Translations under genes and position numbers: made by a program
Origin: Crossiella cryophila
GTDB taxonomy: Bacteria > Actinomycetota > Actinomycetes > Mycobacteriales > Pseudonocardiaceae
Assembly: GCF_014204915.1 (NCBI RefSeq)
Contig: NZ_JACHMH010000001.1
Coordinates: forward strand, 5,791,501-5,855,500
Length of the DNA: 64,000 bases
Reading direction: 5' to 3'
The notes under the pieces: model-generated
Database searches by the model: none
What the model saw: only the letters and a program-made list of their open reading frames with translations
Told to the model about the DNA's origin: nothing
Shown here: positions 12,224 to 48,527 of the stretch, piece by piece
Position numbering within the stretch: position 1 is the stretch's first letter
Layout: every line of letters starts with the position of its first letter

Positions 12224-12280
12224 AACGGCCAACGTGGCGTACGAGATCGGCCAACATGGCGTACGAGAACGGCCAACACG
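12224..12280 (-). repeat. 22-bp repeat array A, after the acyl-CoA dehydrogenase stop
   Basis: Two full 22-bp units (12224-12245, 12246-12267) and a 13-bp partial unit (12268-12280). The core reads AACGGCCAACRYGGCGTAC on the + strand followed by GAG. The array ends 12 bp before the minus-strand stop codon at 12293, so on the transcript it lies immediately in the 3' untranslated region. Confidence 0.9.
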
Positions 12281-12292
12281 CGGGTGAGGGGG

Positions 12293-13462
12293 TTAGACGA
12301 AGGCGCTGTGGCCGGTGATGGCCCTGCCGACGATCAGGGTGTTCATCTCCCGGGTGCCTTCGTAGGAGTAGATGGCTTCGGCGTCGGCGACGAAGCGGGC
12401 CACGTCGTGGTCCAGGATGATGCCGTTGCCGCCGAGGATCTCCCTGGCCCAGCCGACCGCCTCGCGCATGCGGACCGTGCAGACCGCCTTGGCCAGGGCC
12501 GAGTGCTCGTCGCGGTAGACGCCCTCGTCCTGGAGCTGGGCCAGGCGGGTCACCAGGGCGAGGCTGGTGGTGACGTTGGACAGGATGCGGACCAGGAGGT
12601 CCTGGACCAGTTGGAAGCCGGCGATGGGGCGGCCGAACTGCTGCCGCTGCTTGGCGTAGGCGAGGGCCTTCTCGTAGGCGCCCATCATCACGCCGACGGC
12701 CTGCCAGGCGACGCCGCCGAGGGTTTGGCGGAGGATGTCGGCGGTGTCCCGGAAGCCGGTGGCGCGCTGGAGTCGGTTGGCCTCGGGGACCCGGCAGTCG
12801 GTGAGGGTGATGTCGGCGTTCTGCACGGTGCGCAGCGCGACCTTGTGCTCGATCCGGGTGGCGGTGAAGCCGGGGGTGCCCCGTTCGACCACGAAGCCCT
12901 TGACCTTGTTGTCGGCCTCGTCCCTGGCCCAGACCACGATCAGGTCGGCGAAGGTGGCGTTGCCGATCCAGCGCTTGGCGCCGTTGAGGATCCAGTCCTC
13001 GCCCACCCGGCGGGCGGTGGTGCGCATGCCGCCGGAGACGTCGGAGCCGCCTTCGGGCTCGGTGAGGGCGAACGCGCCGATCTGCTCCATCCGGGCCATC
13101 GCGGGCAGCCAGCGCTGCTTCTGCTCCTCGCTGCCGCAGCGGTTGACGCTGCCCATGGCGAGTCCACTGTGGACACCGAAGAAGGTGGCCAGGGACGGGT
13201 CGACCCGGTTCATCTCCATGGCCAGGAAACCGGTGAGCAGGCTGCGTTCGCCGCGGTAGGCCAGGCCCGCGATGTCCAGTTCGGCGAAGCCCTTGACGAG
13301 GTCGTGCGGGAATTCGGCCGCCGCCCAGGCGGCGTTGGCGATGGGGGCGACCTCGGCGGCCAGGAATTCCCTGGTGCGGCGCACGATGTCCTGCTCGCGG
13401 TCGTCCAGCAGGTGCTGGAAGCCGTAGAAATCGCCGGTGAGCAGGTCGGGTTCGGTGGCCAT
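12293..13462 (-). CDS. Acyl-CoA dehydrogenase (glutaryl-CoA-dehydrogenase-like)
   Basis: 389 aa, normal length for an FAD acyl-CoA dehydrogenase. FALTEPEGGSD and WIGNATFADL are the flavin/substrate loops; the catalytic Glu is in SYEGTREMNTLIVGRAITG, a C-terminal signature most like glutaryl-CoA dehydrogenases. It would introduce a double bond into an acyl-CoA in the cytosol. It is the last gene of the four-gene operon, starting 1 bp after the upstream stop. The exact acyl chain is unknown; other short-chain dehydrogenases share these motifs. Confidence 0.9.
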   Translation of the reverse strand: MATEPDLLTGDFYGFQHLLDDREQDIVRRTREFLAAEVAPIANAAWAAAEFPHDLVKGFAELDIAGLAYRGERSLLTGFLAMEMNRVDPSLATFFGVHSGLAMGSVNRCGSEEQKQRWLPAMARMEQIGAFALTEPEGGSDVSGGMRTTARRVGEDWILNGAKRWIGNATFADLIVVWARDEADNKVKGFVVERGTPGFTATRIEHKVALRTVQNADITLTDCRVPEANRLQRATGFRDTADILRQTLGGVAWQAVGVMMGAYEKALAYAKQRQQFGRPIAGFQLVQDLLVRILSNVTTSLALVTRLAQLQDEGVYRDEHSALAKAVCTVRMREAVGWAREILGGNGIILDHDVARFVADAEAIYSYEGTREMNTLIVGRAITGHSAFV

Positions 13463-13463
13463 G

Positions 13464-14393
13464 TCAGGCTCCTTCGGTGCTGTTCAACGCGGCCAGGATC
13501 GCCAGTTGCCGGTCGTCGCGGCGGCGGGTCCGGCCGGGGTAGTCCGTGCTGCCGAAGTCGTGGTCGGCCGCCGCGGACAGGGTGTCCACTGTGGACTCGT
13601 CAAGGGTGGGGGTGCGGCGCTGGGCCCAGCCGCGGGCCATGCCGGGGCCGAGGTGGGTGAGCAGGTGCCGCAGGCCGCCGGGGCCGCCGCCCAGGTGCAG
13701 GGCCTCGAACGGGCCGACCGCGGCCCAGCGGATGCCCAGGGAGTTGCGCACGATCAGGTCCAGCTCGGCCGGGGTGACCACGCCGTCCTGGACCAGGGTG
13801 ACCGCCTCGGCGAACAGCGCGCCCTGCAGCCGGTTGGCCACGAAACCGCGGCTCTCGGCGCGCAGCGTGACCGGGACCTTGCCGAGTTCGCGGTAGAACC
13901 CGGCGGCGCGGTCGATCAGCTCGGGGGTGCTGGTCGGGTGCGGGACCAGTTCGACCAGGGGCAGGACGTGCGGGGGGTTGAACGGGTGACCGACCAGGAC
14001 CCGGCCCGGGTCGGTCATGCTCGCGCCGAGCAGGGTGGGGACCAGGCCGGAGGTGGAGGAGAGCAGCAGGGCCTCCGGCGGGGCCGCCTTCTCCAGTGCG
14101 GCGAACAGGTCCTGCTTGAACTCCAGGTTCTCCGGGCCGTTCTCCTGCACGGCGTGCACATCCCGCACGGCGTGCAGTGTGTCGGCGGTGCACTCCAGGC
14201 GGGTGAGCAGCTCGGCCGCATCGCCGGTGAAGCCGGGGACGGTGGGCGCGAGTTCGGGGATGGCGGTGGCGGCGACCTCGGCCAGGTCGGGGCGCGGGTC
14301 GCACAGGCGGACCCGGAAACCCTTGGCCAGGAACAGGGTCGTCCAGGACAGGCCGATGACGCCTGCGCCGACGACCGCGATGGTGCGGCTCAT
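13464..14393 (-). CDS. 3-hydroxyacyl-CoA dehydrogenase family protein
   Basis: 309 aa. The N-terminus IAVVGAGVIGLSWTTLFLAKG is an NAD-binding Rossmann loop. SSTSGLVPT, GHPFNPPHVLPLVELV and the His in it are typical of the 3-hydroxyacyl-CoA / carnitine-dehydrogenase-like branch. It would oxidise a 3-hydroxyacyl compound to a 3-keto compound with NAD. It overlaps the upstream acetoacetate-decarboxylase-like gene by ATGA and is followed by the dehydrogenase 1 bp later, so it is mid-operon. Confidence 0.88.
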   Translation of the reverse strand: MSRTIAVVGAGVIGLSWTTLFLAKGFRVRLCDPRPDLAEVAATAIPELAPTVPGFTGDAAELLTRLECTADTLHAVRDVHAVQENGPENLEFKQDLFAALEKAAPPEALLLSSTSGLVPTLLGASMTDPGRVLVGHPFNPPHVLPLVELVPHPTSTPELIDRAAGFYRELGKVPVTLRAESRGFVANRLQGALFAEAVTLVQDGVVTPAELDLIVRNSLGIRWAAVGPFEALHLGGGPGGLRHLLTHLGPGMARGWAQRRTPTLDESTVDTLSAAADHDFGSTDYPGRTRRRDDRQLAILAALNSTEGA

Positions 14394-15136
14394 GACCGGT
14401 TCCCTTCCAGGTAGTCGTGCACCGGCCGGAGCGGGGCGAGCGTGAGGTCGGTGATGATGTGGCTGGCCGAGACGATCTCGCGGACCGGCAGGTCGGCCAG
14501 TGGCGCGAGCACGTGCTCGAACAGCTGCAGCCGGGCGGGGCCGGTCCAGGCGTCCTTGATGGTCAGGTCGGTGATCTGGGTGCGGGCCAGCTCGCAGATC
14601 CGGGGCTTGCCGTCGTAGCCGGGGACGATCTTGAGCATGTAGGTGGGCACCGCGATCTCCGCCCTGGCCCGCTCGAAGTCGAGCGGCCGGTGCTGGTAGC
14701 CCATGGTCGCGGTGGCCACCCGCTGCGAGCCGAGATCCAGGGTGCCGACCAGCGCGCCGTGCTCGGCGAAGAGCGCGGGCGAGCCCATCGACTTGGGGTA
14801 GGCGGCCAGTTCGCGCCCGGCGGCGGTGGCGGCGAAGCTGTCGAGGTACATCTGGTGCAGGTACTCGCCGCGTTCGGCGCCGAAGCGGACCGGGATGACC
14901 TGGCCCGCCTCGGTGTAGGGGCCGTAGTTGCTGGCCTGGTTCATCCGCATGATCTCGAAGCGCACCAGCGGTTCCTCGATCTCGAGGGGCTCCGGGACCA
15001 CGGCGCGCAGGGCGTCCGGGTCGGTGCGGTACACGATGTTCAGGTACTCGCGGTCGCGGAAGCGGGTGCGCGAGGCCGGGTAGGCGGGGGCGGTGAGCGG
15101 GGTGGCCAGCCTGCGGGCCACGTCGGCTGCCTTCAT
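14390..15136 (-). CDS. Acetoacetate decarboxylase family protein
   Basis: 248 aa, the usual length of this family. The motif AAYPKSMGSP contains the Lys that forms the Schiff base with beta-keto acids in characterised decarboxylases, and RFGAERGEYLHQMYLD and YMLKIVPGYDG are other conserved blocks. It would decarboxylate a beta-keto acid, though family members also do aldol or dehydratase chemistry. ATGA overlaps with both neighbours show tight translational coupling with the CoA transferase upstream and the hydroxyacyl-CoA dehydrogenase downstream. Confidence 0.87.
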   Translation of the reverse strand: MKAADVARRLATPLTAPAYPASRTRFRDREYLNIVYRTDPDALRAVVPEPLEIEEPLVRFEIMRMNQASNYGPYTEAGQVIPVRFGAERGEYLHQMYLDSFAATAAGRELAAYPKSMGSPALFAEHGALVGTLDLGSQRVATATMGYQHRPLDFERARAEIAVPTYMLKIVPGYDGKPRICELARTQITDLTIKDAWTGPARLQLFEHVLAPLADLPVREIVSASHIITDLTLAPLRPVHDYLEGNRS

Positions 15137-16332
15137 GACGCGGTGACTCCGTTCTCGGCGAGTGCGCGGCGCTGTTCCGGCGGGTAGCCGAGTTCGGCCA
15201 GCACCTCGTCGTTGTCCTGGCCCAGCCGCGGCGCGTGCCTGCGCAGTCCGGCCGGGGTGGCGGAGAAGCGGACCGGCGAGCCGATCACCCGGTAGGCGCC
15301 CTCGGTGGGGTGCTCGGCGGTCTCCAGCAGGCCGACCTCGCGGACGTAGCCGTCCTCGGTGACCTGGTCCAGGTCCAGCACCGGGGCGAACGGGATGCTC
15401 AGCCGTGCGCAGGCGGCCTCCCAGTCGGCGGTGGCGCGCCGCACGGCGAACTTCTCGATCAGCTCGTAGAGGTCGCCGAAGTGCTCGGCGAGGGACTCGG
15501 CGGTGCCGAACCGGGGATCCTCGGCCAGTTCGGGCGCGCCGGCCTCGGTGAAGAAGTCGAGGAGGTTCTCGCGGCTGTAGGGCAGGATGCAGGCCCAGCC
15601 GTCGGCGGTGCGCACGGCGCGGTGGCCGGGGGCGAGCGAGCGCGGGAAGCCCAGCAGGCCCTGCGCGGGCTCGAAGGTGCGGCCGGCGAGGTGCTCGACC
15701 AGGTTGAACGCCAGCATGGTGTCGGTCATCGGCACCTCGACCCGCTGGCCCTCACCGGTGCGCTGGCGGTGCAGCAGCGCGGCGAGCACCGCGTAGACGA
15801 TGGTCAGCCCGCTGACCTTGTCGCCGAGGATGGTCGGCATGTAGGTGGGGGTGCCGGTGGCGCGGCGCATCAGGTCGGCGGTGCCGGAGGTGGCCTGCAC
15901 GATCTCGTCGTAGGCGGCCCGGCCGGCCAGGGAGGAGTCGCTGCGGAAGCCCTGGGCGTTGCAGTACACCAGGTTCGGGTTGACCGCGGCGAGGTCCTCG
16001 TAGCCGAGGCCGAGGCGGGTGAGCGCGCCGGGGCGCATGTTGGTGACCAGCGCGTCGGCGGTGCGCACCAGGTCGAGGAAGACCTGTTTTCCCTGTGGTC
16101 GCTTGAGGTCGAGTGCGATGGCCCGCTTGTTCCGGTTGACGTTGAGCGCCAGCGCGCCCATGCCCGCGTTGCGCGCCGGGGTGGACAGCCTGCTCATGTC
16201 CCCGGCAGGCGCCTCCACCTTGATCACATCGGCGCCCAGATCGCCGAGGATCTGGGTCGCGTACGGGCCCATCACCACGGTGGAGAGGTCGATGATCCGG
16301 ATCCCGTCGAGCGCGCCCCTGTTCTCGGTCAT
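15133..16332 (-). CDS. CaiB/BaiF family (class III) CoA transferase
   Basis: 399 aa, standard length. GIRIIDLSTVVMGPYATQIL and LGDLGADVIKVE are hallmark N-terminal blocks; the Asp expected to carry the acyl-anhydride appears in the region QGFRSDSSLAGRAAYDEIVQA (broken: GRAAYDEIVQ), as in other family members. It transfers CoA between a CoA-thioester and a carboxylic acid, so it probably activates the pathway substrate. ATG 16332 has AGGAAGG just upstream. It is first in the operon, divergent from the IclR gene. Confidence 0.92.
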   Translation of the reverse strand: MTENRGALDGIRIIDLSTVVMGPYATQILGDLGADVIKVEAPAGDMSRLSTPARNAGMGALALNVNRNKRAIALDLKRPQGKQVFLDLVRTADALVTNMRPGALTRLGLGYEDLAAVNPNLVYCNAQGFRSDSSLAGRAAYDEIVQATSGTADLMRRATGTPTYMPTILGDKVSGLTIVYAVLAALLHRQRTGEGQRVEVPMTDTMLAFNLVEHLAGRTFEPAQGLLGFPRSLAPGHRAVRTADGWACILPYSRENLLDFFTEAGAPELAEDPRFGTAESLAEHFGDLYELIEKFAVRRATADWEAACARLSIPFAPVLDLDQVTEDGYVREVGLLETAEHPTEGAYRVIGSPVRFSATPAGLRRHAPRLGQDNDEVLAELGYPPEQRRALAENGVTAS

Positions 16333-16392
16333 CACGGTCCTTCCTCGTTGTGCTCCGGTCACCTCCGAACTTAGGCAGGCTAACGATCTTAC

Positions 16393-16409
16393 GCAATGTG
16401 ATACGTTGC
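16393..16409. promoter_or_regulatory. Imperfect palindrome, candidate IclR operator
   Basis: GCAATGTGATACGTTGC: outer arms GCAA/TTGC match and one position is mismatched in the 6-bp arms. It is in the 102-bp divergent gap between the CoA transferase and IclR starts, the usual place for an IclR autoregulatory site. Confidence 0.55.
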
Positions 16410-16434
16410 TATCCATATAGGTAAAGGAGCCGCG

Positions 16435-17184
16435 ATGTCCGATCTCGCCCCCAAACGCCCACATCACCGCGCGGTCGACCGCATCGCCGCCATCCTGGAG
16501 ACCGTGGCCACCGAGCCGCAGGGACTGGGCCTCACCCAGCTCGCGCTGCGCCTGGACGCCCCGGTCTCCTCGATCCAGAAGCTGGTCAACGGCCTGGTCG
16601 CGGTCGGCTACCTGGACGAGACCGACCACCGCTTCACCCTGGGCGCCGCGCCGTACCTGCTGTCGCTGCGCGCCGGGCGGGTGCCTGCCAGGGTGGTGCG
16701 GCACGCGGACCTGGTGGCGCTGTCCAGGGAACACCGGTGCAGCGCGGTGCTGGCGGTGCGGCTGGGGGACGCCTCGGTGTACGTGGACTGGGCGGGGACG
16801 GACGACCCGTTCAACTACCTGACGGTGCGGCAGTTGCGCACGCCGTTGCCGGAGACCGCGGTGGGGCGGGTGCTGCTGGCACACCTGCCGGAGCGGGAGC
16901 GGCATGAGGTGGTGAGCGCGCACGTGGGCGGGGAGGCGGAGGCCGCGCTGGGGCTGCTGGCGGAGCTGGCGGAGATCCGCGAGGACGGGTTCTCGCTGGG
17001 GGACAGCGGGCCGATGCTGCGCGGGATCGCGGCGGTGGCGGCGCCGGTGTGGGCGGAGGGGGTTGTGGTGGGGGCGGTGTCCCTGGCGGGGCGGCGGGAG
17101 GGGGTGGGGGAGCGGTTGCCGGAGTTGGCTGAGGTGTTGGTGTCGGCGGTGCGGGAGTGGGCTGGGCGGGCGGTGGAGCGGTGA
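16435..17184 (+). CDS. IclR-family transcriptional regulator
   Basis: 249 aa. N-terminal winged helix (AVDRIAAILETVA, LGLTQLALRLDAPVSSIQKLVNGLVAVGYL in separate helices) and C-terminal effector-binding GAF-like domain (from about residue 75, PETAVGRVLLAHLP and RGIAAVAAPVW). AAAGGAG lies 6 nt before ATG 16435. Divergent arrangement makes it the likely regulator of the CoA-transferase operon, with a CoA ester or free acid as effector; this is inference. Codon and base composition become markedly G-rich in the last third. Confidence 0.9.
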   Translation: MSDLAPKRPHHRAVDRIAAILETVATEPQGLGLTQLALRLDAPVSSIQKLVNGLVAVGYLDETDHRFTLGAAPYLLSLRAGRVPARVVRHADLVALSREHRCSAVLAVRLGDASVYVDWAGTDDPFNYLTVRQLRTPLPETAVGRVLLAHLPERERHEVVSAHVGGEAEAALGLLAELAEIREDGFSLGDSGPMLRGIAAVAAPVWAEGVVVGAVSLAGRREGVGERLPELAEVLVSAVREWAGRAVER

Positions 17185-17320
17185 GGTGGGCGGGCGCCGG
17201 GTAGCGGGTGGCCGGTGGGTGAGTCGGGTGGGGCAGGCCGAAGGTGCTCTGGGTGGCGGTTCGGGCGGGGCTGGGGTGTGGTGATCGGGGCGGGGGCCAG
17301 GGGCGGGTTTGTGGTGGCTG

Positions 17321-17366
17321 GCCTGTACGAGTTCGGCCAACATGGTGTACCGGAACGGCCAACACG
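17321..17366 (-). repeat. 22-bp repeat array B, after the propeller/DUF5648-like gene
   Basis: A partial unit, one full 22-bp unit (17332-17353) and a 13-bp partial unit (17354-17366) with core CGGCCAACAYGGTGTAC. It ends 9 bp before the minus-strand stop at 17376, the same position and orientation as array A. Confidence 0.88.
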
Positions 17367-17375
17367 CGGGCGGGG

Positions 17376-19232
17376 TCAGGTGAGGGCGTAGCCGAGGCGG
17401 CCTTCGTTGCGGCCGCCGGGGACGCCTTCGCAGTTCTCGTGTGGGGACAGGAAGTGGTCGTCCTGGGTGGGCCAGTAGCAGCGGTACAGCGGGATGGACG
17501 GCGCGGTGGGGCGGTCGAGGTAGGCCCAGCCCTCGGTGCGGAGCACGGTCTGGTTCTCGCAGCCGGGCTGGGTGGAGGTGAAGTGGTTGAGGCCCTTCAC
17601 ACTGGTGTACGAGCAGCCGTACAGGGCGAGGGTGCCTGGTTTGGGCGCGGATTCCAGGTACCAGCGGTGTTCCAGGGCGTACTTGGGGGTGACGGGGCCG
17701 GTGGTGTCCCAGTGTTCGCGGCCGTCGTAGAAGCGGCTGAACGCGCGCTGGGTGGTGGTCAGGGCGTGACCGAGGAACCTGTCCTGGGTGCCTCGGCCCT
17801 CGCAGTCCGCCGCGGTCGAGGTGAAGTGGTCGTTGCCGGATTTGCAGCGGTACAACGGGGTTGACGGCGCGGCGGGGGGTTCGATGTGGATTCGGCCCTC
17901 GGTTTGCAGCACGGCGTGCTGCGGTGCGTCACAGCCCGCGGCCAGGGACAGGTAGTGGTCGGTGCCGTTGCGGCAGCCGTGCAGCGGGACGGTGCCCGGC
18001 TCGGCCGCGGTCTCCAGCTGCCACAGCCTGCCGGGTTCGGGGGCGAAGCCGGGGGTGCGGTCCAGGATCGTGCTGGTGCGGTGCTGGGTGCCGTTGACGT
18101 AGCCGGTCAGCGTGGTCCTCGGCAGGGTGCGGCCTGCGACGCAGGTGATGTGGCGGCGCATGGTGACCGCGTTCGCCCAGTCGCCGGGCTTGGCCCATTG
18201 CAGGTAGTACAGGTAGAAGTCACTGTCCACAATGGACGGGTCGGGGCCGGTGCCGACGATGGTGGGGTAGGCGTTGCCGCGGTCTGGGTCGCGGAACAGG
18301 GTGGTCGGGCCGGACCAGCCGGTCATCCCGTCCGGTGAGGTGGCCAGCACGAACTCGGTGATGCTGTTGCCCGCCACCATGATCGTGCCGCCGCGGGTGG
18401 TCTTCACCACGCTGGGGTGCCAGGCGCCGACGCCCTGCTCGCGCACCGCGCTGCTGGGTCCGTTGCGGCCGGGGGAGTTCCAGGCGCCCTCGTGGTACTT
18501 CCGCCAGTCGCCGGCCTTGCCCTGCCGGGCCGCCGCGATCACCTCGGCCAGCGGGGCGCGGGCCACCGACAGCGGGGTGTTGACCCACTTGCCGTTGTCG
18601 AAGGAGTAGTCCGGGAAGTAGGCGTGGAGGTAACCGTCGCGCAGCACGAAGCTGGACGTGCCGATGTCGGCGGTCAGCTTGTGCTGGAAGGCGGTGGCGA
18701 ACTCCATGTCCGGGGCGATGATCTCGCCAAGCCGCCGGGTGTGGCCGGTGACCGGGTCGTGCAGGCCCAGGTGCAGTTCGGAGTAGAACTGGTGCTGCGG
18801 ACCCTGCAGATCGCGTTCCAGGTGCAGCATCTGCAGCACCAGGCCGCTGCCCGGATCGCGGAAGACCGGGCCGCCGCCGGCGTACTGGTAGCCCGCCGGG
18901 ATGTTCTGCACCTGTCCGTGCTTGGCCCCGCCCGCCACCGGGTTGTCCAGCGTGCCGCGGGTGGTCGAGATGCTCTGGTTCGTGGCGCCGGAGGGCACCA
19001 GCGCGGACACGGCCAGGAACCGGTACTGGCCGTCGCCCTCGGGCAGCACCCCGAAGGCGGTGTCCGGCCAGCCCTTGAGGCCGAGGCCGAGCCGGGTGGC
19101 GTTGTCCACCACGACCTGGGCCGGTCCGGCGGAGACCGCGGCACACGGTTCGATCGCAGTGGGGGCGGCCGCGGCCGGTTGCAGGCCGGTGGCGGTCAGC
19201 GCGACCGCGGCGGCCAGTACTCGGATGATCAC
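17376..19232 (-). CDS. Secreted protein: propeller-like N-terminal region plus Cys-containing DUF5648-type repeats
   Basis: 618 aa with a signal peptide (1-22, LTATGLQPAAAA). Residues about 30-380 alternate short strands with Asp-Pro turns (FRDPGSGLVLQM, FPDYSFDNGKW, GAWHPSVVKTT, DPSIVDSDFYLYYLQW), which suggests a GH43/sialidase-like beta-propeller; I cannot assign catalytic residues with certainty. The rest contains at least four units of the pattern xPLYxCxxGxDHFxSxxxxCE, similar to DUF5648-type lectin-like repeats but with paired cysteines (PLHGCRNGTDHYLS, PLYRCKSGNDHFTS, ALYGCSYTS, PLYRCYWPTQDDHFLS). Probably extracellular carbohydrate binding or hydrolysis. Start GTG 19232 has no strong ribosome-binding site. 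Confidence 0.78.
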   Translation of the reverse strand: MIIRVLAAAVALTATGLQPAAAAPTAIEPCAAVSAGPAQVVVDNATRLGLGLKGWPDTAFGVLPEGDGQYRFLAVSALVPSGATNQSISTTRGTLDNPVAGGAKHGQVQNIPAGYQYAGGGPVFRDPGSGLVLQMLHLERDLQGPQHQFYSELHLGLHDPVTGHTRRLGEIIAPDMEFATAFQHKLTADIGTSSFVLRDGYLHAYFPDYSFDNGKWVNTPLSVARAPLAEVIAAARQGKAGDWRKYHEGAWNSPGRNGPSSAVREQGVGAWHPSVVKTTRGGTIMVAGNSITEFVLATSPDGMTGWSGPTTLFRDPDRGNAYPTIVGTGPDPSIVDSDFYLYYLQWAKPGDWANAVTMRRHITCVAGRTLPRTTLTGYVNGTQHRTSTILDRTPGFAPEPGRLWQLETAAEPGTVPLHGCRNGTDHYLSLAAGCDAPQHAVLQTEGRIHIEPPAAPSTPLYRCKSGNDHFTSTAADCEGRGTQDRFLGHALTTTQRAFSRFYDGREHWDTTGPVTPKYALEHRWYLESAPKPGTLALYGCSYTSVKGLNHFTSTQPGCENQTVLRTEGWAYLDRPTAPSIPLYRCYWPTQDDHFLSPHENCEGVPGGRNEGRLGYALT

Positions 19233-19257
19233 CGGATGAGTGTGCCCGGATCGCGGG

Positions 19258-19791: not shown

Positions 19792-19879
19792 GTGTCCAGT
19801 ATCCACCGGGTGAAGATCGCGCCGCCACGACCAGGGTGCCCGAGGTTGGTTCGGCCGGTCCTTCGTCTAGGCTCTGACC

Positions 19880-20536: not shown

Positions 20537-20540
20537 GGGG

Positions 20541-21410: not shown

Positions 21411-21449
21411 GGCCGCAGCGTAGGGCGGGCCACTGACACTTCGGTGGTG

Positions 21450-21490
21450 CCGGAGCGCCCCCACCTTCGCGGGTGGTGAGGGCGCTCCGG
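21450..21490 (-). terminator. Terminator of the polyol operon
   Basis: CCGGAGCGCCC (21450-21460) pairs perfectly with GGGCGCTCCGG (21480-21490); inside it CCACC/GGTGG forms a second stem with loop TTCGCG. It starts 2 nt past the dehydrogenase stop at 21493. Confidence 0.9.
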
Positions 21491-21492
21491 GG

Positions 21493-24232: not shown

Positions 24233-24243
24233 CGTTCCTCCTC

Positions 24244-25599
24244 TCAGGACTTCCGGTACTTCGCGGCGACCTTGTCGGCCAGGCCTTGCGCCGACTTCAG
24301 GGCCTCGTCCACGCTCTGCCGTCCGGCGATGGCCGAGCTGATCTCCTGGGAGACCTGGGTGCCGAGGTTGGTGAACTCGGGGATGCCGACGAACTGGATG
24401 CCGTAGGCGGGCCGGGGTTGCACGCCCGGGTTGCGCGGGTCGGCGGTGGCGATGGCGGTGCGGGTGGCATCGGCGTAGGAACCGCCCAGCTTCAGGTATT
24501 CCGGGCGCTGGTAGGTCGAGGCGCGCTTGCCGTCGGGGACCTTGGACCAGCCGAGCTGCTGCCCGGCCACGGTCTCGTAGTCCTTGCCACTGGCCCAGGA
24601 CAGGAACTTCCAGGCCGCCTGCTGCTTGGCCGATGCCTGCTGCACGGCGAAGGCCCAGGTGTAGAGCCAGCCGGAACTCTTGGTCTTGACCACCGGCGCC
24701 TGGGCGAAGCCGAGCTTGCCGCGCACCGGGGAGTCCGCGGCCTCCAGGAGTCCGGCGGCGGAGGTGGCGTCGTACCACATGGCGGTCTTGCCCTGGGTCA
24801 TGTTGTTGAGGCATTCGGCGAAACCGGCTTGCGGCGCACCGGCTTCACCGTGATCGCGGACCAGGTCGACGTAGAACTTGGTGGCCTCGGTGAACTCGGG
24901 GGAGTCCAGTTTCGCCTGCCAGTCCTGGGTGAACCAGGTGCCGCCGAAGGTGTTGACCACCGTGGTCAGCGGGGCCATCAGCTGTCCCCAGCCGGGCTGG
25001 CCGCGTAGGCAGATGCCCTTCAGCCCTGGCTCCGCACCGTCCACTTTGGACGCGATGTCGGCGACCTGTTGCCAGGTGGGCTTGTCCGGCATGGTGAGGT
25101 TCTTGGCCGCGAGGATGTCCTTGCGGTACATCAGGAAGGAGGACTCGCCGTAGAAGGGCTGGGCGTAGACCTTGCCGTCGGCGGCGGTCAGCGACTGCCG
25201 GATCGGCTCCAGGATGTCCTGCTGGTCGAAGCCGGGATCGGCGGCGATGAAGCCGTCCAGGGGGGCCAGCCACTTGTTCCTGGCGTAGATCGGCACCTCG
25301 TAGTTGGACAGGGTGGCGATGTCGTACTGCCCGGCCTGGCTGGTGAAGTCCTGGCTGATCTTGTCCCGGACGTCGTTCTCCGGCAGCACGGTGAAGTTCA
25401 CCTTCACCCCGGTGCGGCTGGTGAAGTGCTGGGCGGTGAGCCGCTGGATGTCGAGCATCTGCGGGTTGTTCACCATCAGCACGTTGATCGAGTTCGGGTC
25501 GTCCGGATCGCCGATGCCGCCCGCGCCCGCGCATCCCGCGGTCAGCAGTAGCGAGCACGCCGCGATCGCCCCGAGCCCGCGTCGGGTAGGAGACCTCAT
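24244..25599 (-). CDS. Extracellular sugar/polyol-binding lipoprotein
   Basis: 451 aa. LLLTAGC is a lipobox. The mature part starts with INVLMVNNPQMLDIQRL and contains GQYDIATLSNYEVPIYA, which closely follows the pattern of mannitol/sorbitol-binding proteins (family 1). It captures the substrate outside the cell for the two downstream permeases. ATG 25599 has GGAAGG 7-12 nt upstream; an N-terminal extension would run through the repeat array and is rejected. Confidence 0.9.
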   Translation of the reverse strand: MRSPTRRGLGAIAACSLLLTAGCAGAGGIGDPDDPNSINVLMVNNPQMLDIQRLTAQHFTSRTGVKVNFTVLPENDVRDKISQDFTSQAGQYDIATLSNYEVPIYARNKWLAPLDGFIAADPGFDQQDILEPIRQSLTAADGKVYAQPFYGESSFLMYRKDILAAKNLTMPDKPTWQQVADIASKVDGAEPGLKGICLRGQPGWGQLMAPLTTVVNTFGGTWFTQDWQAKLDSPEFTEATKFYVDLVRDHGEAGAPQAGFAECLNNMTQGKTAMWYDATSAAGLLEAADSPVRGKLGFAQAPVVKTKSSGWLYTWAFAVQQASAKQQAAWKFLSWASGKDYETVAGQQLGWSKVPDGKRASTYQRPEYLKLGGSYADATRTAIATADPRNPGVQPRPAYGIQFVGIPEFTNLGTQVSQEISSAIAGRQSVDEALKSAQGLADKVAAKYRKS

Positions 25600-25622: not shown

Positions 25623-25657
25623 CGTGTTGGCCGTTCTTGTACGTCGTGTTGGCCGTT
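25623..25657 (+). repeat. 22-bp repeat array C1 (inverted relative to C2)
   Basis: A 13-bp partial unit CGTGTTGGCCGTT (25623-25635) and a full 22-bp unit (25636-25657). It lies 24 bp upstream of the binding-protein start and points in the opposite direction to array C2, 46 bp away, so the pair can fold into a long stem. Confidence 0.88.
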
Positions 25658-25703
25658 GTGGGTGGGACCGGGGGCGGGAGCCGTCCGGCAATGGCGAACT
25701 CCC

Positions 25704-25747
25704 CGTACGACAACGGCCAACGTGGCGTACGAGAACGGCCAACACTC
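25704..25747 (-). repeat. 22-bp repeat array C2, after the DeoR stop
   Basis: A partial unit, a full unit (25712-25733) and a partial unit (25734-25747) with core AACGGCCAACGTGGCGTAC. It ends about 10 bp before the DeoR stop codon at 25758, matching arrays A and B in position and orientation. Confidence 0.88.
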
Positions 25748-25757
25748 GGGTTGGGGG

Positions 25758-26519
25758 TTAGACGCGGAGGACCTTGGGGCCCAGGAGGGCGTAGCGGTGG
25801 GCCTCGGTGGGGGAGAGCGTGGTGTCGGTGATGATCGCCTCGAAGTCGCCGACGGCGGCGAACTTGCTGAAGCTGGCCACCCCGAACTTGGTGTGCACGC
25901 CGACGAAGACCTTCCGCCGGGAGGACCGCATCGCCTGTGCCTTGACCGCGCTGACCACCGGGTCCGGGGTGGTGAGCCCGTGTTCGCGGGAGATGCCGTT
26001 GGCGCCGATGTAGGCCAGATCGATGACCAGCTCGCTCAGCATCCGGATCGCCCAGTGGTCCACGGTGGCCTTGGTGCGGCCGCGGACCCGCCCGCCCAGC
26101 AGCAGCACGGTGACGCTGGGCTGCTCGGACATGGCCGCCGCGGTGGGCAGCGAGGCGGTGACCACGGTCAGCGGCCGGTTGGCAGGCAGGTGTTCGGCGA
26201 TGAGGTGCGGGGTGAAGCCCTCGTCGATGAACACCGTCTCGGCCTCGTCCAGCCGGTCGGCCGCGGCCCTGGCGATGCGCTGCTTCTCCGGGACCATGGA
26301 CGCGGCCCGGAAGGCCAGCCCGGTCTCGAACCCGGCGCTCTCCACCGGCAGCGCGCCGCCGTGCGTGCGGCGCAGCAGCCCGTGTTCGCCGAGGGTCTTG
26401 AGGTCGCGGCGCACCGTTTCCGGCGCCACCCCGAACTCACTGGCCATGGCCATCACGTCGACCTTGCCGTCGGCTCGGGCCCTGGCCAGGATGCGTCGCT
26501 TGCGGTCCTCCGCCTGCAT
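25758..26519 (-). CDS. DeoR-family regulator
   Basis: 253 aa. N-terminal winged helix (RKRRILARARADGKVDVMAM, VAPETVRRDLKTLGEHGLLRRTHGGA in two helices) and a C-terminal DeoRC sugar-phosphate sensor domain (IDEGFTPHLIAEHL, YIGANGISREHGLTTPD). AGGAGG is placed ideally before ATG 26519. It likely responds to a phosphorylated sugar or polyol and controls the transporter operon downstream and perhaps the MFS gene upstream. Confidence 0.9.
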   Translation of the reverse strand: MQAEDRKRRILARARADGKVDVMAMASEFGVAPETVRRDLKTLGEHGLLRRTHGGALPVESAGFETGLAFRAASMVPEKQRIARAAADRLDEAETVFIDEGFTPHLIAEHLPANRPLTVVTASLPTAAAMSEQPSVTVLLLGGRVRGRTKATVDHWAIRMLSELVIDLAYIGANGISREHGLTTPDPVVSAVKAQAMRSSRRKVFVGVHTKFGVASFSKFAAVGDFEAIITDTTLSPTEAHRYALLGPKVLRV

Positions 26520-35803: not shown

Positions 35804-35882
35804 ACGATGGACTGCACAGCGTGATGGGCTGTACAGCGTGATGGGCTGTACAGCGTGATGGGCTGTACAGCGTGATGGGCTG
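35804..35882. repeat. 17-bp tandem repeat with internal palindrome GCTGTACAGC
   Basis: Three perfect copies of GTGATGGGCTGTACAGC (35821-35837, 35838-35854, 35855-35871), a degenerate copy before (35804-35820) and a partial copy after. Each unit carries the 10-bp palindrome GCTGTACAGC, so palindromes repeat every 17 bp. The surrounding gap 35514-36029 shows no gene. It could be an operator array or a simple minisatellite; it lies about 290 bp upstream of the propeller gene and downstream of the ArsR stop. Confidence 0.93.
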
Positions 35883-38930: not shown

Positions 38931-38978
38931 ACCACTGGCAGGCAAGGGCTTACCGCCACCGACGTCGAAGGAGGTCCC

Positions 38979-40640
<1,662 letters not shown>

Positions 40641-40674
40641 GCGGCGCCTGGGAAGGACAGGAGGACTCACGGGG

Positions 40675-41796: not shown

Positions 41797-42773
41797 GATA
41801 CGTGCTCCAGCGCCTGGCGTTCTACCTGTTCACCGCCTGGGCCGCGGTGACCATCAACTTCTTCATCCCCAGGCTCATCCCCGGCGACCCGGTCACCTCG
41901 CTGATCTCCCGCCAGCAGGGCGCGATCAGCGCGGAGAACATCCAGTCACTGTATGTCCTTTTCGGACTCGACGGCGACCAGGGCATCTTCGAGCAGTACC
42001 TGGACTACTGCGGTCAGCTGCTCAGCGGCGACCTCGGCCTGTCCTTCACCTTCTTCCCCTCCCCGGTCTCCGACGTGCTCGCGCAAAGCCTGCCGTGGAC
42101 GGTGATCCTGGTCGGCATCACCACCATCGCCAGCTTCCTCATCGGCACCGGCCTCGGCGTGCTCGCCGGGTGGCGGCGCGGCTCCTGGGTGGACCTGGTG
42201 CTGCCGGTGACCACCTTCCTGTCCTCGGTGCCCTACTTCTGGCTCGGCCTGATCGCCATCAGCCTCTTCGCCGGCATCGACGGCGCCTTCCCGGCCTCCG
42301 GCGGCTTCGAGGCCGGCCTGGTGCCCGGCTGGGACCTGGAGTTCATCGGCAGCGCGCTCTACCACAGCATCCTGCCCGCGATCACGATCATCATCTCCTC
42401 GATGAGCGGCTGGATCCTCAGCATGCGCAACATGATGGTCACCGTGGCCGCCGAGGACTACGTCACCGTCGCGCACGCCAAGGGCCTGTCCGAAAGCCGG
42501 GTCGCGCTCAGCTACGCCGCGCGCAACGCGGTGCTGCCCAACGTCTCCGGCCTCGCGCTGTCCCTTGGCTTCATCGTCGGCGGCACCCTGCTGGTGGAGA
42601 TCGTCTTCTCCTATCCCGGGGTGGGCTTCCAGCTCTTCCAGGCCGTCGGCGCCAAGGACTACCCGCTGCTGCAGGGCATCTTCCTGGTGATCACCCTCTC
42701 CGTGCTGGTCGCCAACCTGCTGGCCGACCTGGCCTACCTCGCCCTCGACCCGCGCACCCGCAAGGAGGGCTGA
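41793..42773 (+). CDS. ABC transporter permease, DppB-like
   Basis: 326 aa, six membrane segments. [15 protein letters not shown] at the N-terminus and [34 protein letters not shown] (in two pieces, the EAA-like loop) are standard DppB features. Start GTG 41793. Confidence 0.92.
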
Positions 42774-42776
42774 GCC

Positions 42777-43774
42777 ATGGCCATGCCCACCACCGACCTG
42801 CTCGCCGCGGCCGCGCGACCACCAGGAGAACCGCTGCTCGCGAACAAGCGGCGCCGATTCCGCTTCGCCAGCAACAGCAAAACCCTCATCGGACTGCTGC
42901 TCATCGGCTTCTTCGTGCTGCTGGCCGTCATCGGGCCCTGGATCGCGCCCTACGACCCGTCCCAGCGCAGCTCGGCGTTGCTGGAACCGCCCTCGGCCGC
43001 GCACTGGTTCGGCACCACGCACATCGGCCAGGACATCTTCAGCCAGATCCTGGTCGGCGCGCGCAGCGTCATCCTGGTCGGCTTCCTCGCCGGGGGAGTG
43101 GCCTCGGTGCTGGCCGTGCTCGTCGGCGTCACCTCCGGCTACCTCTCCGGCGCGGTCGGCGAGAGCCTGTCCATGGTCTCCAACGTCTTCCTGGTGCTGC
43201 CCGCGCTGCCCCTGGTCATCATCGTCACCGCGACCCTGCCCGGCACCGGCGACATCACCGTGGCCATGGTCATCGGCTTCACCTCCTGGGCCTGGGGCGC
43301 CAGGGTGCTGCGCGCGCAGACCTTGTCCTTGCGGCGCAGGGACTATGTCGAGGCCGCCCGCGCCACCGGCGAACCGACCTGGCGGATCATCCTGTTCGAG
43401 ATCATGCCCAACCTGTCCGCGGTGATCGCCTCCAACTTCGTCGGCACGGTCATCTTCGCGGTGATGTCGGAGATCACCCTGGCCTTCATCGGCGTCTCCG
43501 GCATCTCCGAATGGAACTGGGGCACCATCCTGTTCTGGGCACAGAGCCAGCAGGCACTGGCCCAGGGCGCCTGGTGGTGGTTCGTGCCCGCTGGCCTGGC
43601 CATCGCGTTGCTGGGCACCGCGTTGTCCCTGCTGAACTTCGGCATCGACGAGTTCGTCAGCCCACGCCTGCGCAGCTCCGGCGGCCGCCGCGCCCGCGGC
43701 CCCGACGGCAAGGTGGTCCGGATGCGGGTCGGCTTCACCCCCGTCCTCGGGGAGTCCACAAAGGACGGTGCGCG

Positions 43775-43778
<4 letters not shown>
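42777..43778 (+). CDS. ABC transporter permease, DppC-like
   Basis: 333 aa. After a basic N-terminal tail come the conserved WIAPYDPSQ and HWFGTTHIGQDIFSQILVGARSVILVG (broken) blocks of DppC permeases, then the loop DYVEAARATGEPTWRI. Starts 4 bp after DppB and overlaps the next ATPase by ATGA. Partner of the DppB-like subunit in the membrane. Confidence 0.92.
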
Positions 43779-44776
<998 letters not shown>

Positions 44777-44792
44777 GCGAGAAGGAGACAGC

Positions 44793-46205
<1,413 letters not shown>

Positions 46206-46279
46206 CGAATGGCGGGTGCGGCGGCCGGTCCGGCTGCCGCACCATGTAGCACGGTTCTCCCGCACACTCCCGCCGCCAC

Positions 46280-46295
46280 GGGAAACCGCTTTCCC
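46280..46295. promoter_or_regulatory. LacI-type palindrome upstream of the glucose-dehydrogenase-like gene
   Basis: GGGAAACCGCTTTCCC has perfect 6-bp arms around a central CCGC, typical of LacI-family operators, 27 bp upstream of ATG 46323. It lies in the 117-bp gap after GH1, so the downstream gene probably has its own regulated promoter. Confidence 0.55.
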
Positions 46296-46322
46296 TCACT
46301 GCACACCTTGAGAGGAACGGTT

Positions 46323-47807
46323 ATGAGAACTGGCTTGAAAGCGCTTACCAGAGTGGCGCTGCCGGTGGTGGTCCTGGCGGGTGGCCTGGTCCTGCCCGCG
46401 CTGCCAGCGGGCGCGGCGCCGGTCAGGTACGAGGCCGAGAACGCCACCATCTCCCAGGGACTGGTGGAGTCCAACCACGCCGGGTTCAGCGGCACCGGCT
46501 TCGTCAACAACGACAATGTGGCGGGCAGTTACGTCGAGTGGACGGTGAACGCCGCCTCCGCCACGAGCAACGCGGTGCTCGCCTTCCGCTACGCCAACGG
46601 CGGCGGGGCCAACCGGCCGCTGGACATCACCGTCAACGGCAACCTGGTCTCCAACGACCTGGCCTTCCCCAGCAACGGCTGGACCAACTACCAGAGCGTG
46701 ACGATCAACGCCGCGCTCAACGCCGGGTCCAACACCATCCGGGCCACCGGGGCCACCGCCACCGGCGGCCCCAACCTGGACGCCCTGGACGTGGACACCG
46801 CGCCGGTGCCCGGCCGCGGCAACCCGCAGCCCCCGGCCAACGTCAGCACCGGCTGGTCCATCCCGTGGGCGGTCTCCTTCCTGCCCGACGGCCAGTCCGC
46901 GCTGGTGACCGAGCGGGACACCTTCCGGGTGTTCCGGGCCGGGCTCAACGGCAGCAAGACCCAGGTCGGCACGGTGCCCAACAGCACCACCACCGGCGGT
47001 GAGGGCGGTCTGATGGGTGTGGCGGTCTCGCCCGGCTGGAACGGTTCCAGCGACCAGGACGTGTTCTTCTTCCACACCTCCAACGACGGTGGCGCGCAGG
47101 CCAACCGGATCGTGCGGATGAGCTTCAACGGCACCACGTTGAGCAACCGCCAGATCATCGTCAACAACCTGCCTGCCAGCCGCTTCCACAACGGCGGACA
47201 GCTCAAGTTCGGCCCGGACGGGTTCCTGTACGCCACCACCGGTGACGCGCAGAACACCAGCCTGGCGCAGAACCTGAACAGCCCGGCAGGCAAGGTCCTG
47301 CGGTTCACCCGGACCGGCGCGGCGGCGCCGGGCAACCCGTTCAACTCGCTGGTCTACAGCTACGGGCATCGCAACGCCCAGGGGCTGGCCTGGGACTCGG
47401 CCGGGCGGTTGTGGTCGGCCGAGCTGGGCAACGTGTCGACGGATGAGTTGAACCTGATCCTGCCGGGACGCAACTACGGATGGCCGCAGTGCGAGGGCAA
47501 CTGCGGGGTCAGCGGGATGGAGAACCCGAAGCGGACCTGGACCACCGCGGAGGCATCGCCGTCCTCGCTGGCGATCGTGAACGACACGGCCTATGTCGCG
47601 GCGTTGCGGGGGCAGCGGCTGTGGCGGGTGGAGCTGAACGGGACGAGCGCGGGGGCCACTACCGCGCACTTCAACTCGTTCGGGCGGTTGCGGTCCGTGG
47701 TGAAGGTGCCGGGGGCGAACGCGATCTGGATCGGGACGACGAACGCTGATGGGAATGGGGGGCAGGGGCCTGGGTCGGATCGGATCTTGCGTAGCGAGAT
47801 CCGGTGA
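46323..47807 (+). CDS. Secreted CBM6/35 plus glucose/sorbosone dehydrogenase-like protein
   Basis: 494 aa with signal peptide (1-33, ending LPAGAA). Residues about 36-160 (VRYEAENATISQGLVESNHAGFSGTGFVN, in pieces; GSNTIRATGATATGGPNLDALDV) form a CBM6/35-type carbohydrate-binding module. From STGWSIPWAVSFLPDGQSALVTER to the end is a six-bladed propeller of the PQQ-type glucose/sorbosone dehydrogenase family (FHNGGQLKFGPDGFLYATTGDAQ, YSYGHRNAQGLAW). It may oxidise a cell-wall-bound sugar outside the cell. GAGAGGAAC precedes the ATG. Confidence 0.87.
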   Translation: MRTGLKALTRVALPVVVLAGGLVLPALPAGAAPVRYEAENATISQGLVESNHAGFSGTGFVNNDNVAGSYVEWTVNAASATSNAVLAFRYANGGGANRPLDITVNGNLVSNDLAFPSNGWTNYQSVTINAALNAGSNTIRATGATATGGPNLDALDVDTAPVPGRGNPQPPANVSTGWSIPWAVSFLPDGQSALVTERDTFRVFRAGLNGSKTQVGTVPNSTTTGGEGGLMGVAVSPGWNGSSDQDVFFFHTSNDGGAQANRIVRMSFNGTTLSNRQIIVNNLPASRFHNGGQLKFGPDGFLYATTGDAQNTSLAQNLNSPAGKVLRFTRTGAAAPGNPFNSLVYSYGHRNAQGLAWDSAGRLWSAELGNVSTDELNLILPGRNYGWPQCEGNCGVSGMENPKRTWTTAEASPSSLAIVNDTAYVAALRGQRLWRVELNGTSAGATTAHFNSFGRLRSVVKVPGANAIWIGTTNADGNGGQGPGSDRILRSEIR

Positions 47808-47829
47808 TCTCGGGCTGGTGAGCTGAGGT

Positions 47830-47860
47830 TGTCGGGCGGGCGGTCCCAGCCCGCCCGACA
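47830..47860 (+). terminator. Terminator after the glucose-dehydrogenase-like gene
   Basis: TGTCGGGCGGGC (47830-47841) and GCCCGCCCGACA (47849-47860): perfect 12-bp stem, 7-nt loop, 22 nt after the stop. Confidence 0.92.
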
Positions 47861-47885
47861 GCCCGCCCAGCGCTGCTCCACCCGG

Positions 47886-47942
47886 CGTGTTGGCCGTTCT
47901 GGTACGGCGTGTTGGCCGTTGTTGTACGGGGTGTTGGCCGTT
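47886..47942 (+). repeat. 22-bp repeat array D1, downstream of the glucose-dehydrogenase-like gene
   Basis: A 13-bp partial unit (47886-47898) and two full 22-bp units (47899-47920, 47921-47942), core GTACGGCGTGTTGGCCGTT on the + strand. It follows the plus-strand gene and its terminator, so in the sense of transcription it has the same orientation as arrays A, B, C2 and D2. No gene is visible between 47808 and 48546. Confidence 0.92.
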
Positions 47943-48055
47943 GTGGGCGGGTTGGTGCACGAGCGGAAGATCAAGATCAAGGGCGTCCTCGCCGGACGGG
48001 CAGGAATCAAAGGATGGGGGGAGGTTCAAAGTCAAGGGCAGAGAGCAGTGCTCGT

Positions 48056-48207
48056 GCGGTTCCCCATCCCCGTCAGCCTTCCGATACCAAACCACATCCT
48101 GGGCGCGCGGACCCCTGCGGTTGGGTGGCTAGGGCGGCGGCGGGTTGCGGGTCCGCGCGCCCAGGATGCGGTGTGTCCTCTCCAGGCTGACGGGGATGGG
48201 GAACCGC
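48056..48207. repeat. 152-bp nested inverted repeat
   Basis: Outer arms 48056-48079 and 48184-48207 are perfect 24-bp inverted copies (left arm begins GCGGTTCCCC, right arm ends GGGGAACCGC). Inner arms 48095-48114 and 48149-48168 are perfect 20-bp inverted copies (CATCCTGGGCGCGCGGACCC on the left). Each arm pair is separated by exactly 15 nt on both sides, and the central loop is 34 nt. The symmetry implies one long hairpin or cruciform with a 15 x 15 internal bulge. Could be a bidirectional terminator, a small MITE-like element or a processed RNA. Confidence 0.95.
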
Positions 48208-48246
48208 TCAGGTGGGGTTTGAAAAGCCACCCCGGCTGCTTGTGTG

Positions 48247-48403
48247 CGGGCTTCGCCCGGTCGCGGCGCGTTCGAACGGCCTAGCCGCATCGTTCCCGGG
48301 CTTCGCCCGCCTCCGTGTCTGGAAATGCCCGGCCGCCATGTCCCGGGCTTCGCCCGCCCACGCGCCCATCACCACCTGGCCGCCTGCCTCCGGGCTTCGC
48401 CCG
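48247..48403. repeat. Four copies of a 13-bp hairpin at about 47-bp spacing
   Basis: CGGGCTTCGCCCG occurs at 48247-48259, 48297-48309, 48344-48356 and 48391-48403, starts 50, 47 and 47 bp apart. Each folds as a 4-5-bp GC stem with a short loop. The sequences between copies are unrelated. Looks like a short interspersed palindromic family, not a CRISPR. Confidence 0.9.
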
Positions 48404-48449
48404 CCTGCCCGCCCGCTGCCCCCTCAACACCCACCGCCGCCCCGTCCAC

Positions 48450-48527
48450 AACCGCCAACACGCCGTACAAAAACGGCCAACACGGCGTACAACAACGGCC
48501 AACACGCCGTACCAGAACGGCCAACAC
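48450..48527 (-). repeat. 22-bp repeat array D2, after the histidine kinase stop
   Basis: Three full 22-bp units (48450-48471 degenerate, 48472-48493, 48494-48515) and a 12-bp partial (48516-48527), core AACGGCCAACACGSCGTAC. It ends 19 bp before the kinase stop at 48547. It is inverted relative to D1 about 500 bp away. The largest array in the window. Confidence 0.92.

What the first reader, a model, noticed from the sequence alone, without database searches (positions are those of the whole stretch)
12224..48527. A dispersed 22-bp tandem repeat family placed just after gene ends
Arrays of 2-4 copies of the same 22-bp unit (core AACGGCCAACACGGCGTAC plus three variable bases) occur at 12224, 17321, 25623, 25704, 47886 and 48450. 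Five of the six lie within 9-80 bp downstream of a stop codon, always with the same orientation relative to that gene's transcription. Units vary in the same few positions, so the rest is under constraint or recently spread. The position fits a 3'-end RNA element or a protein/DNA-binding site; I know of no described family that matches.
Basis: seen in the sequence. Interest (0 to 1): 0.75.

Follow-up and report, generated by a model that had tools for sequence, protein, structure and literature searches.

The report
Species-specific 22-bp repeats at gene ends
An actinobacterium and its closest relatives carry hundreds of short repeated DNA blocks that sit just behind the stop signals of genes, mostly as mirror-image pairs able to fold into long hairpins, and species spell the block differently, which suggests a fast-evolving way of marking or finishing gene ends.

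Summary
The genome (genus Crossiella) holds 683 near copies of the core (reversed control 4); a two-unit pattern is common in four of five Crossiella genomes and absent from 385 other family genomes. In 2.06 Mb examined, 84 of 114 arrays are arms of inverted pairs that can fold into stable hairpins. None lies inside a called gene; they abut stop codons: 32 of 109 convergent, 20 of 444 tandem, 3 of 310 divergent gaps over 60 bp. The claimed fixed orientation fails (41 against 43). Convergent gaps with arrays seldom hold another hairpin (4 of 29 against 50 of 125). Congeners spell units differently at shared loci; one genome, 96% identical to an array-rich one, lacks them at six of six loci compared but keeps two relics. 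It works like a REP/BIME but is not a REP: the unit is no palindrome, and two array-rich genomes lack the Y1 transposase. Likeliest role: a hairpin that ends or protects transcripts (0.42). A selfish repeat and a protein-binding array remain live. Against termination: arms do not co-vary, and in six of 20 tandem gaps the array ends 12-41 bp before a start codon.

The parts
12224..12279 (+). Array of three 22-bp units, tail towards the stop codon of the acyl-CoA dehydrogenase gene 12293-13462 (-)
   Evidence: array at the same place in G001
12280..12292 (+). G-rich tail between the last unit and the stop codon
17332..17365 (+). Array of two units, the first degenerate, 10 bp from the stop codon of the gene 17376-19232 (-); the G001 orthologue holds TTGGSCCAA cores
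   Evidence: coordinates read off the sequence
25624..25657 (-). Left arm (two units) of a head-to-head inverted pair; 24 bp upstream of the start codon of the solute-binding-protein gene 24244-25599 (-)
25712..25745 (+). Right arm (two units) of that pair, 12 bp from the stop codon of the DeoR-type gene 25758-26519 (-)
   Evidence: paired arrays at the same place in G002, a TTGGSCCAA array in G001, none in G003 and G004
25746..25757 (+). G-rich tail between array and stop codon
47887..47942 (-). Left arm (three units) of an inverted pair between convergent genes 46353-47807 (+) and 48547-49743 (-)
47943..48449 (.). 507-bp body inside the pair, not present in the pair of G001 and G002: most simply a later insertion of a second dispersed repeat
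48057..48206 (+). 150-nt near-perfect hairpin inside the body (second repeat family)
48247..48403 (+). Four copies of the short hairpin CGGGCTTCGCCCG (starts 48247, 48297, 48344, 48391)
48450..48527 (+). Right arm (four units) of the pair, 19 bp from the stop codon of 48547-49743 (-)
48528..48546 (+). G-rich tail between array and stop codon
47830..47860 (+). Ordinary terminator-like hairpin (12-bp perfect stem) behind the left gene's stop codon; array-less G004 has an imperfect version
   Evidence: read by eye

Best explanation
The arrays are arms of a genus-specific gene-end palindrome that works like the REP/BIME elements of other bacteria but is built differently. Each arm is 2-5 head-to-tail copies (more in G003) of a 22-bp unit. 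Two arms in opposite orientation, joined head-to-head (centre 11-54 bp, 11-13 in 9 of 15) or tail-to-tail (centre 24-36 bp, by eye often a small hairpin), lie between or behind stop codons. Shown: genus restriction in the genomes searched, extragenic position, stop-codon anchoring, inverted pairing, hairpin potential, scarcity of other hairpins beside them, unit spellings that differ between species. Inferred: once transcribed, the pair folds into a long hairpin that ends the transcripts of one or both flanking genes or shields their 3' ends. Also inferred: new units replace old ones by copying between or within arrays (concerted evolution), by a mechanism I did not identify.
For: None of 114 arrays lies within a called gene (three overlap a called gene end by 2-14 bp); 68 are in convergent, 41 in tandem, 5 in divergent gaps. 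Of gaps over 60 bp, 32 of 109 convergent, 20 of 444 tandem, 3 of 310 divergent carry arrays (Fisher 1e-17 against divergent and 2e-12 against tandem); over all gaps the denominators are 337, 1074 and 336 (sums). In tandem gaps the stop-side edge is at most 43 bp from the stop in 18 of 20, the start-side edge within 60 bp of the start in 6 of 20. 15 head-to-head pairs fold with mean z -9.6, 28 tail-to-tail pairs with -10.6; 24 lone arrays range from -2.7 to 0.9. Array-bearing convergent gaps hold another perfect stem of 9 or more in 4 of 29, array-less ones in 50 of 125 (p 0.009), and those ordinary stems also lie close to stops (median 8.5 bp, n 46). At one locus G004 has an ordinary hairpin where G002 has the array, and one of two relic arrays in G004 stands directly before an ordinary hairpin; both hairpins read by eye.
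Against: Pairing between arms is not kept by compensatory change: true elements fold better than arm-swapped chimaeras in only 8 of 14 and 9 of 28, and variable positions of opposite arms match no better than random in tail-to-tail pairs (2.81 against 3.06 of 6, n 42) and hardly better in head-to-head pairs (3.56 against 3.23, n 9). In 6 of 20 tandem gaps the array ends 12-41 bp upstream of the next start codon, where a strong terminator would cut off the next gene; the window pair at 25624-25745 is one. At 48 kb the array stands beside an ordinary hairpin. At two array-less sites (one in G004; one in G002 and G004) the convergent stop codons overlap, so there is no gap for a terminator at all (frames read by eye). 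24 arrays have no other array within 160 bp. No expression data.
Confidence: 0.42

Rival explanations
1. Selfish or neutral repeat: a short mobile or recombination-spread element that survives only where insertion does no harm, that is behind stop codons and away from promoters. No function; the hairpins are a by-product of inverted arrangement.
For: Lacking at six of six compared loci in G004, which is 96% identical to array-rich G002; no arm co-evolution; fast unit turnover; the position bias equals that of places tolerant of insertion.
Against: Fewer other hairpins beside arrays; arrays at the same gene ends in three species at three loci; no target duplication seen by eye, and the one transposase family searched (Y1) is missing from two array-rich genomes.
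Confidence: 0.3
2. Arrays of binding sites for a DNA- or RNA-binding protein (nucleoid protein, gyrase-like activity or roadblock), units two helical turns apart, with the protein's specificity changing between species.
For: Sequence rather than pairing is kept: positions 3, 5-9, 16, 17, 19 and 21 nearly invariant among full units; spacing 22 bp in 200 of 228 and 21 bp in 25 of 228, nearly in step through the centre of 9 of 15 head-to-head pairs; G001 and G003 have their own unit spellings in large numbers.
Against: No candidate protein was found or systematically sought; position is tied to stop codons rather than promoters; copying between arrays explains uniform units without a reader.
Confidence: 0.2
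3. DNA-uptake-type signal with species dialects, spread by biased transformation as in Neisseriaceae.
For: Species spellings and, at 25.6 kb, a G002 flank that by eye looks like G000 while G004 looks like G003, as if the array travelled with its flank.
Against: None of 114 arrays in genes, whereas uptake sequences also occur in genes (recalled); natural transformation of Crossiella is not known to me.
Confidence: 0.04
4. CRISPR array, ends of an insertion sequence, or chance.
For: Tandem repeats with varying spacers look superficially like CRISPR; outer ends can be read as TG...CA.
Against: Spacers of 9-10 nt in 225 of 228, 84 kinds in 228, built round GTAC; 683 against 4 in the reversed control.
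Confidence: 0.02

Closest known systems
REP / BIME elements (GTAG and CGTC super-families; PMC3733652, passages read)
   Same: High-copy, mostly extragenic, mostly in convergent and unidirectional gaps, convergent ones within 20 bp of both flanking genes in the two species diagrammed there, HH and TT dimers, mosaics with other repeats, abundance differing between close relatives.
   Different: REP units are themselves small stem-loops tagged GTAG or CGTC, and head-to-tail dimers are absent or scarce in most genomes. Here the unit is not palindromic (longest self-stem 3-5 in 213 of 213) and head-to-tail arrays are the rule. Y1 transposase is absent from two array-rich genomes. The word 'actinobact' does not occur in that paper's main text.
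STAR elements of staphylococci (PMC3532100, first part and passages read)
   Same: Intergenic GC-rich direct repeats in one genus, numbers not following relatedness; a core TNTGTTGNGGCCC that by eye recalls GTGTTGGCCG.
   Different: 62-90 motifs per S. aureus genome, interspersed with at least 40 bp; the words 'stop codon', 'convergent' and 'orientation' do not occur in that paper's main text.
DNA uptake sequence dialects of Neisseriaceae (PMC3630211, search listing only; terminator pairs recalled)
   Same: Species-specific spellings of a short repeat, also found as inverted pairs at gene ends (recalled).
   Different: Not in 22-bp tandem arrays; present in genes too; read by a pilus protein (recalled).
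Multi-site transposon ends (Tn7, Mu; recalled)
   Same: Several 22-bp sites per end in opposite orientation, TG...CA ends, Tn7's insertion behind a gene.
   Different: No target duplication seen by eye; their transposases were not searched for; tail-to-tail forms also fill whole gaps.

Membership tests
REP/BIME | High-copy extragenic repeat at gene ends, scarce in divergent gaps | tested here: met
REP/BIME | The unit itself is a palindromic stem-loop (stems 5-13 bp) tagged GTAG or CGTC | tested here: not met
   longest perfect self-stem 3-5 nt in 213 of 213 unit-plus-core stretches (5 nt in 24), no more than random sequence; no such tag seen by eye
REP/BIME | Alternating orientation, HH and TT dimers, head-to-tail rare | tested here: inconclusive
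   HH and TT pairing of arrays is present, but within arms head-to-tail is the rule
REP/BIME (GTAG type) | Y1 (RAYT) transposase in the genome | tested here: not met
   PF01797: G000 1 (with a stop inside), G001 3, G002, G003 and G004 0; G002 and G003 are array-rich
CRISPR | Unique spacers of about 25-40 nt between identical repeats (recalled) | tested here: not met
   spacers 9-10 nt in 225 of 228, 84 kinds
STAR | TNTGTTGNGGCCC motif | not tested
   pattern not searched; unit consensus differs
DNA uptake sequence | Also frequent inside genes (recalled) | tested here: not met
   none of 114 arrays within a called gene; single units in genes were not tallied
DNA uptake sequence | Drives uptake of DNA | not testable with these tools
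   needs an uptake assay
Insertion sequence or MITE | Target duplication and transposase | tested here: inconclusive
   array-less sites compared; no direct repeat seen by eye; only one transposase family searched

The most novel reading that the evidence does not exclude
Crossiella species mark gene ends with tandem-arm palindromes written in species-specific dialects, and much of a genome's set changes dialect while the loci stay put. This would mean a trans-acting reader (protein or RNA machinery) or a strong copying drive acting on gene ends: a kind of repeat system I found described in no actinomycete, and one that a sister lineage (G004) has all but lost or never built up.
Probability: 0.25. 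Interest if true: 0.85.

Novelty: new variant of a known kind. Interest (0 to 1): 0.6.

Why it matters
Gene-end repeats are known from Proteobacteria and other phyla as REP/BIME elements. Here is a separate family in an actinomycete genus with another architecture and a natural comparison at hand: two genomes 96% identical over the window's orthologues, one with about 250 two-unit pattern hits, the other with two, and close species with different unit spellings at the same loci. That makes the old questions of how gene-end repeats spread, homogenise and act on transcript ends directly testable.

Tried and rejected
Chance: rejected. CRISPR: rejected. REP with RAYT: defining features failed. Phage origin: 0 exact two-unit matches in viral contigs. 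Kutzneria as host genus: my first guess, dropped when the only named hit was Crossiella and that record proved identical to G001 over 8 kb. Rfam: no family above its cut-off near 48 kb; the best sub-threshold match was a microRNA model. Compensatory pairing between arms: looked for in two ways, not found. Fixed orientation to the gene: not found. Target duplications: none seen by eye, no formal test. Direction of the G002/G004 difference is not settled: at 25.6 kb G004 shares array-less sequence with G003 (by eye), which speaks for an original array-less state or later exchange, while two degraded arrays in G004 and arrays shared by G000, G001 and G002 speak for loss. The three divergent regions with arrays were not examined for missed genes; one apparent divergent case in G003 looks by eye like a missed gene.
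Full report
What was checked. The 19-bp core occurs 10 times in the window with up to 3 mismatches, against 0.05 expected, and Tandem Repeats Finder reports 22-bp arrays of this unit at 12224, 47883 and 48450. The window lies at 5,791,501-5,855,500 of a 10,058,141-base single-contig genome (G000), which holds 683 matches to the core with up to 3 mismatches (342 forward, 341 reverse) against 4 for the reversed control.

Whose genome. Among 120 genomes (G000 and relatives), only the five members of its genus match a two-unit pattern with up to 2 mismatches: G000 698, G001 203, G002 252, G003 170, G004 2. In a wider search of 390 genomes of the family with a slightly different two-unit pattern and 1 mismatch, the same five match (G000 649, G001 163, G002 272, G003 188, G004 1) and the other 385 do not. 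An exact three-unit pattern hits one contig in the named collection of 84,980 species genomes, Crossiella sp. S99.2; the window's own genome may be left out there, and an exact pattern misses other spellings. That 8-kb locus is 100% identical to G001 and 94% identical to G000. The genus is therefore Crossiella, family Pseudonocardiaceae. No viral contig holds the two-unit pattern exactly.

The unit. From 342 cores in four stretches of G000 and one of G002, the unit is AACGGCCAACAC followed by a 10-bp spacer built around GTAC. In full units with a 10-bp spacer, positions 3, 5-9, 16, 17, 19 and 21 are nearly invariant; spacing is 22 bp in 200 of 228 and 21 bp in 25 of 228; 84 spacer kinds occur. 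Cores were searched with up to 2 mismatches, which limits the variation that could be seen. The end after CAC often carries a G-rich tail.

Architecture. I fetched 1.66 Mb of G000 and 0.4 Mb of G002 and called genes with my own codon-usage script (86-92% coding, starts uncertain). There are 114 arrays of two or more units, none within a called gene, three overlapping a called gene end by 2-14 bp, in 55 intergenic regions. 84 of the 114 are arms of inverted pairs less than 60 bp apart: 15 head-to-head with a centre of 11-54 bp (11-13 in 9) and 28 tail-to-tail with a centre of 24-36 bp that by eye often is a small hairpin (three-array mosaics share an arm). By region: 17 hold one tail-to-tail pair, 13 one head-to-head pair, 9 one single array, 16 combinations.

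Position. Arrays occupy 32 of 109 convergent, 20 of 444 tandem and 3 of 310 divergent regions over 60 bp. Since arrays lengthen regions, the fairer denominators are all regions: 337, 1074 and 336 (sums), with the same order. In tandem regions the element is anchored to the upstream stop codon (at most 43 bp in 18 of 20) rather than the next start (within 60 bp in 6 of 20). Of 84 outermost arrays facing a stop, 41 face it with the tail and 43 with the head, median distance 19 bp for both.

Hairpins and terminators. Head-to-head pairs (15) fold with mean z -9.6, tail-to-tail pairs (28) with -10.6, 24 lone arrays between -2.7 and 0.9. Convergent regions without arrays hold a perfect stem of 9 or more in 50 of 125, those with arrays, arrays masked, in 4 of 29 (p 0.009; regions under 25 or over 1200 bp left out, so 29 of the 32). 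Three of those four have 300 bp or more outside the arrays. Ordinary stems also lie close to stops (median 8.5 bp, n 46). This is what a shared role would look like, but it is correlational. Against it: arms do not co-vary (true better than chimaera in 8 of 14 and 9 of 28; variable positions), and in six tandem regions the array ends 12-41 bp before a start codon, as at window 25624, upstream of a solute-binding-protein gene.

Relatives. Over the window's orthologues identities are G000-G001 93.7, G002-G004 96.1, G000-G002 87.1, and about 81-82 to G003. At 25.6 kb G002 has paired arrays, G001 an array with another core, G003 and G004 none. At 48 kb G001 and G002 have the inverted pair without the 507-bp body, G003 and G004 none. 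So the pair is most simply older than the body. At the region-C locus (9,152,607) G000, G001 and G002 have arrays, of opposite pairing in G000 and G002. At the region-B locus (3,311,524) G000 and G001 have arrays while G002 and G004 have overlapping stop codons. Where G002 has an array and G004 could be compared, G004 lacks it at six of six loci: two, three, one by alignment gap only. At one of these G004's convergent stop codons overlap, at another it has an ordinary hairpin, at a third other sequence that looks coding (by eye). In 53 kb of G004 a tandem-repeat scan found no array of this kind. The two pattern hits of G004 are degraded arrays between called genes, one directly before an ordinary hairpin (by eye): G004 is not wholly free of the family, and these relics favour loss. 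At 25.6 kb, by eye, the G002 flank resembles G000 while G004 resembles G003, which hints at recombination. I could not settle gain against loss.

Dialects. Two-unit matches with the core TTGGSCCAA number 497 in G001, 3 in G000 and 0 in G002, G003, G004 and three genomes of other genera; G001 also keeps 203 hits of the window's spelling. G003 spacers begin GAG in 34 of 48 units, while GAG is not among the seven commonest in G000. G003 keeps both pair types. In G001, two loci are mosaics with the window's spelling outside and TTGGSCCAA inside. So unit spelling shifts genome by genome while loci persist, which I read as concerted evolution. The means is unknown.

Comparison with known kinds. The position pattern matches REPs: Di Nocera and colleagues report REPs mostly in convergent and unidirectional gaps, most convergent ones within 20 bp of both flanking genes in two species, with HH and TT dimers (PMC3733652, passages). 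RepRanger's authors discuss REPs within 15 nt of stop codons that stall ribosomes (PMC12306157, passages). But a REP unit is a tagged stem-loop; this unit is not palindromic, and the Y1 transposase was not found in G002 and G003. STAR elements are the nearest direct-repeat kind I know (PMC3532100, first part and passages). Searches of the held library for Kutzneria or Crossiella with genome and repeat, and for actinomycete gene-end tandem repeats, listed no description; only the Kutzneria albida paper PMC4210621 was looked into, by passages. Most subscription papers are not held.

Verdict. Real, confined to one genus in the genomes searched, gene-end bound, organised mainly as hairpin-forming inverted pairs, with species dialects. 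Works like a REP/BIME; is not a REP. Most likely a transcript-end hairpin (0.42), with a selfish repeat (0.30) and a protein-binding array (0.20) as serious rivals.

Noticed in passing
window 47975-48235 (hairpin 48057-48206): Second dispersed repeat with a 150-nt near-perfect hairpin (fold z -9.2): 109 matching pieces in G000, 40 of them near full length, 34 in G002, 24 in G004, 15 in G001, 0 in G003; only 40 candidates per genome were scored, so these are lower bounds. Present in array-poor G004, so independent of the 22-bp arrays. At several G001 places the two flanks lie joined, with 8 bp overlap, without the hairpin, as if it had inserted into another repeat.
   Followed up: partly
window 48247, 48297, 48344, 48391: Short hairpin CGGGCTTCGCCCG in four copies here and seen in other intergenic bodies; looks REP-like.
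   Followed up: no
window 1577-1740: Perfect tandem repeat of GGCCTCGC, 20.5 copies, in a 1.6-kb convergent gap of my gene calls.
   Followed up: no
window 35806-35882: 17-bp tandem repeat, 4.5 copies, 96% matches.
   Followed up: no
window 5311-5550: 54/108-bp tandem repeat of G-rich, imperfect units.
   Followed up: no
G000:C1:1974180-1975310: A gene of about 0.9 kb is bounded by a minus array on the left and a plus array on the right, like the cargo of a transposon; not tested whether it is one.
   Followed up: no
L203 and L204 (G004, G003) against G000:C1:9152607-9153273: Where G000, G001 and G002 carry arrays, G004 and G003 carry longer sequence that looks coding; whether the two are related was not tested.
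   Followed up: partly
G000:C1:7289300-7291300 (L202): Where G002 has an array, G000 has over 1 kb of other sequence, with repeated motifs that look coding, between the same neighbours.
   Followed up: no
L034 (around 1500-1650) and L039 (around 1499-1532), G004: Two degraded 22-bp arrays, the only pattern hits in G004; the one in L039 is followed at once by an ordinary hairpin.
   Followed up: partly
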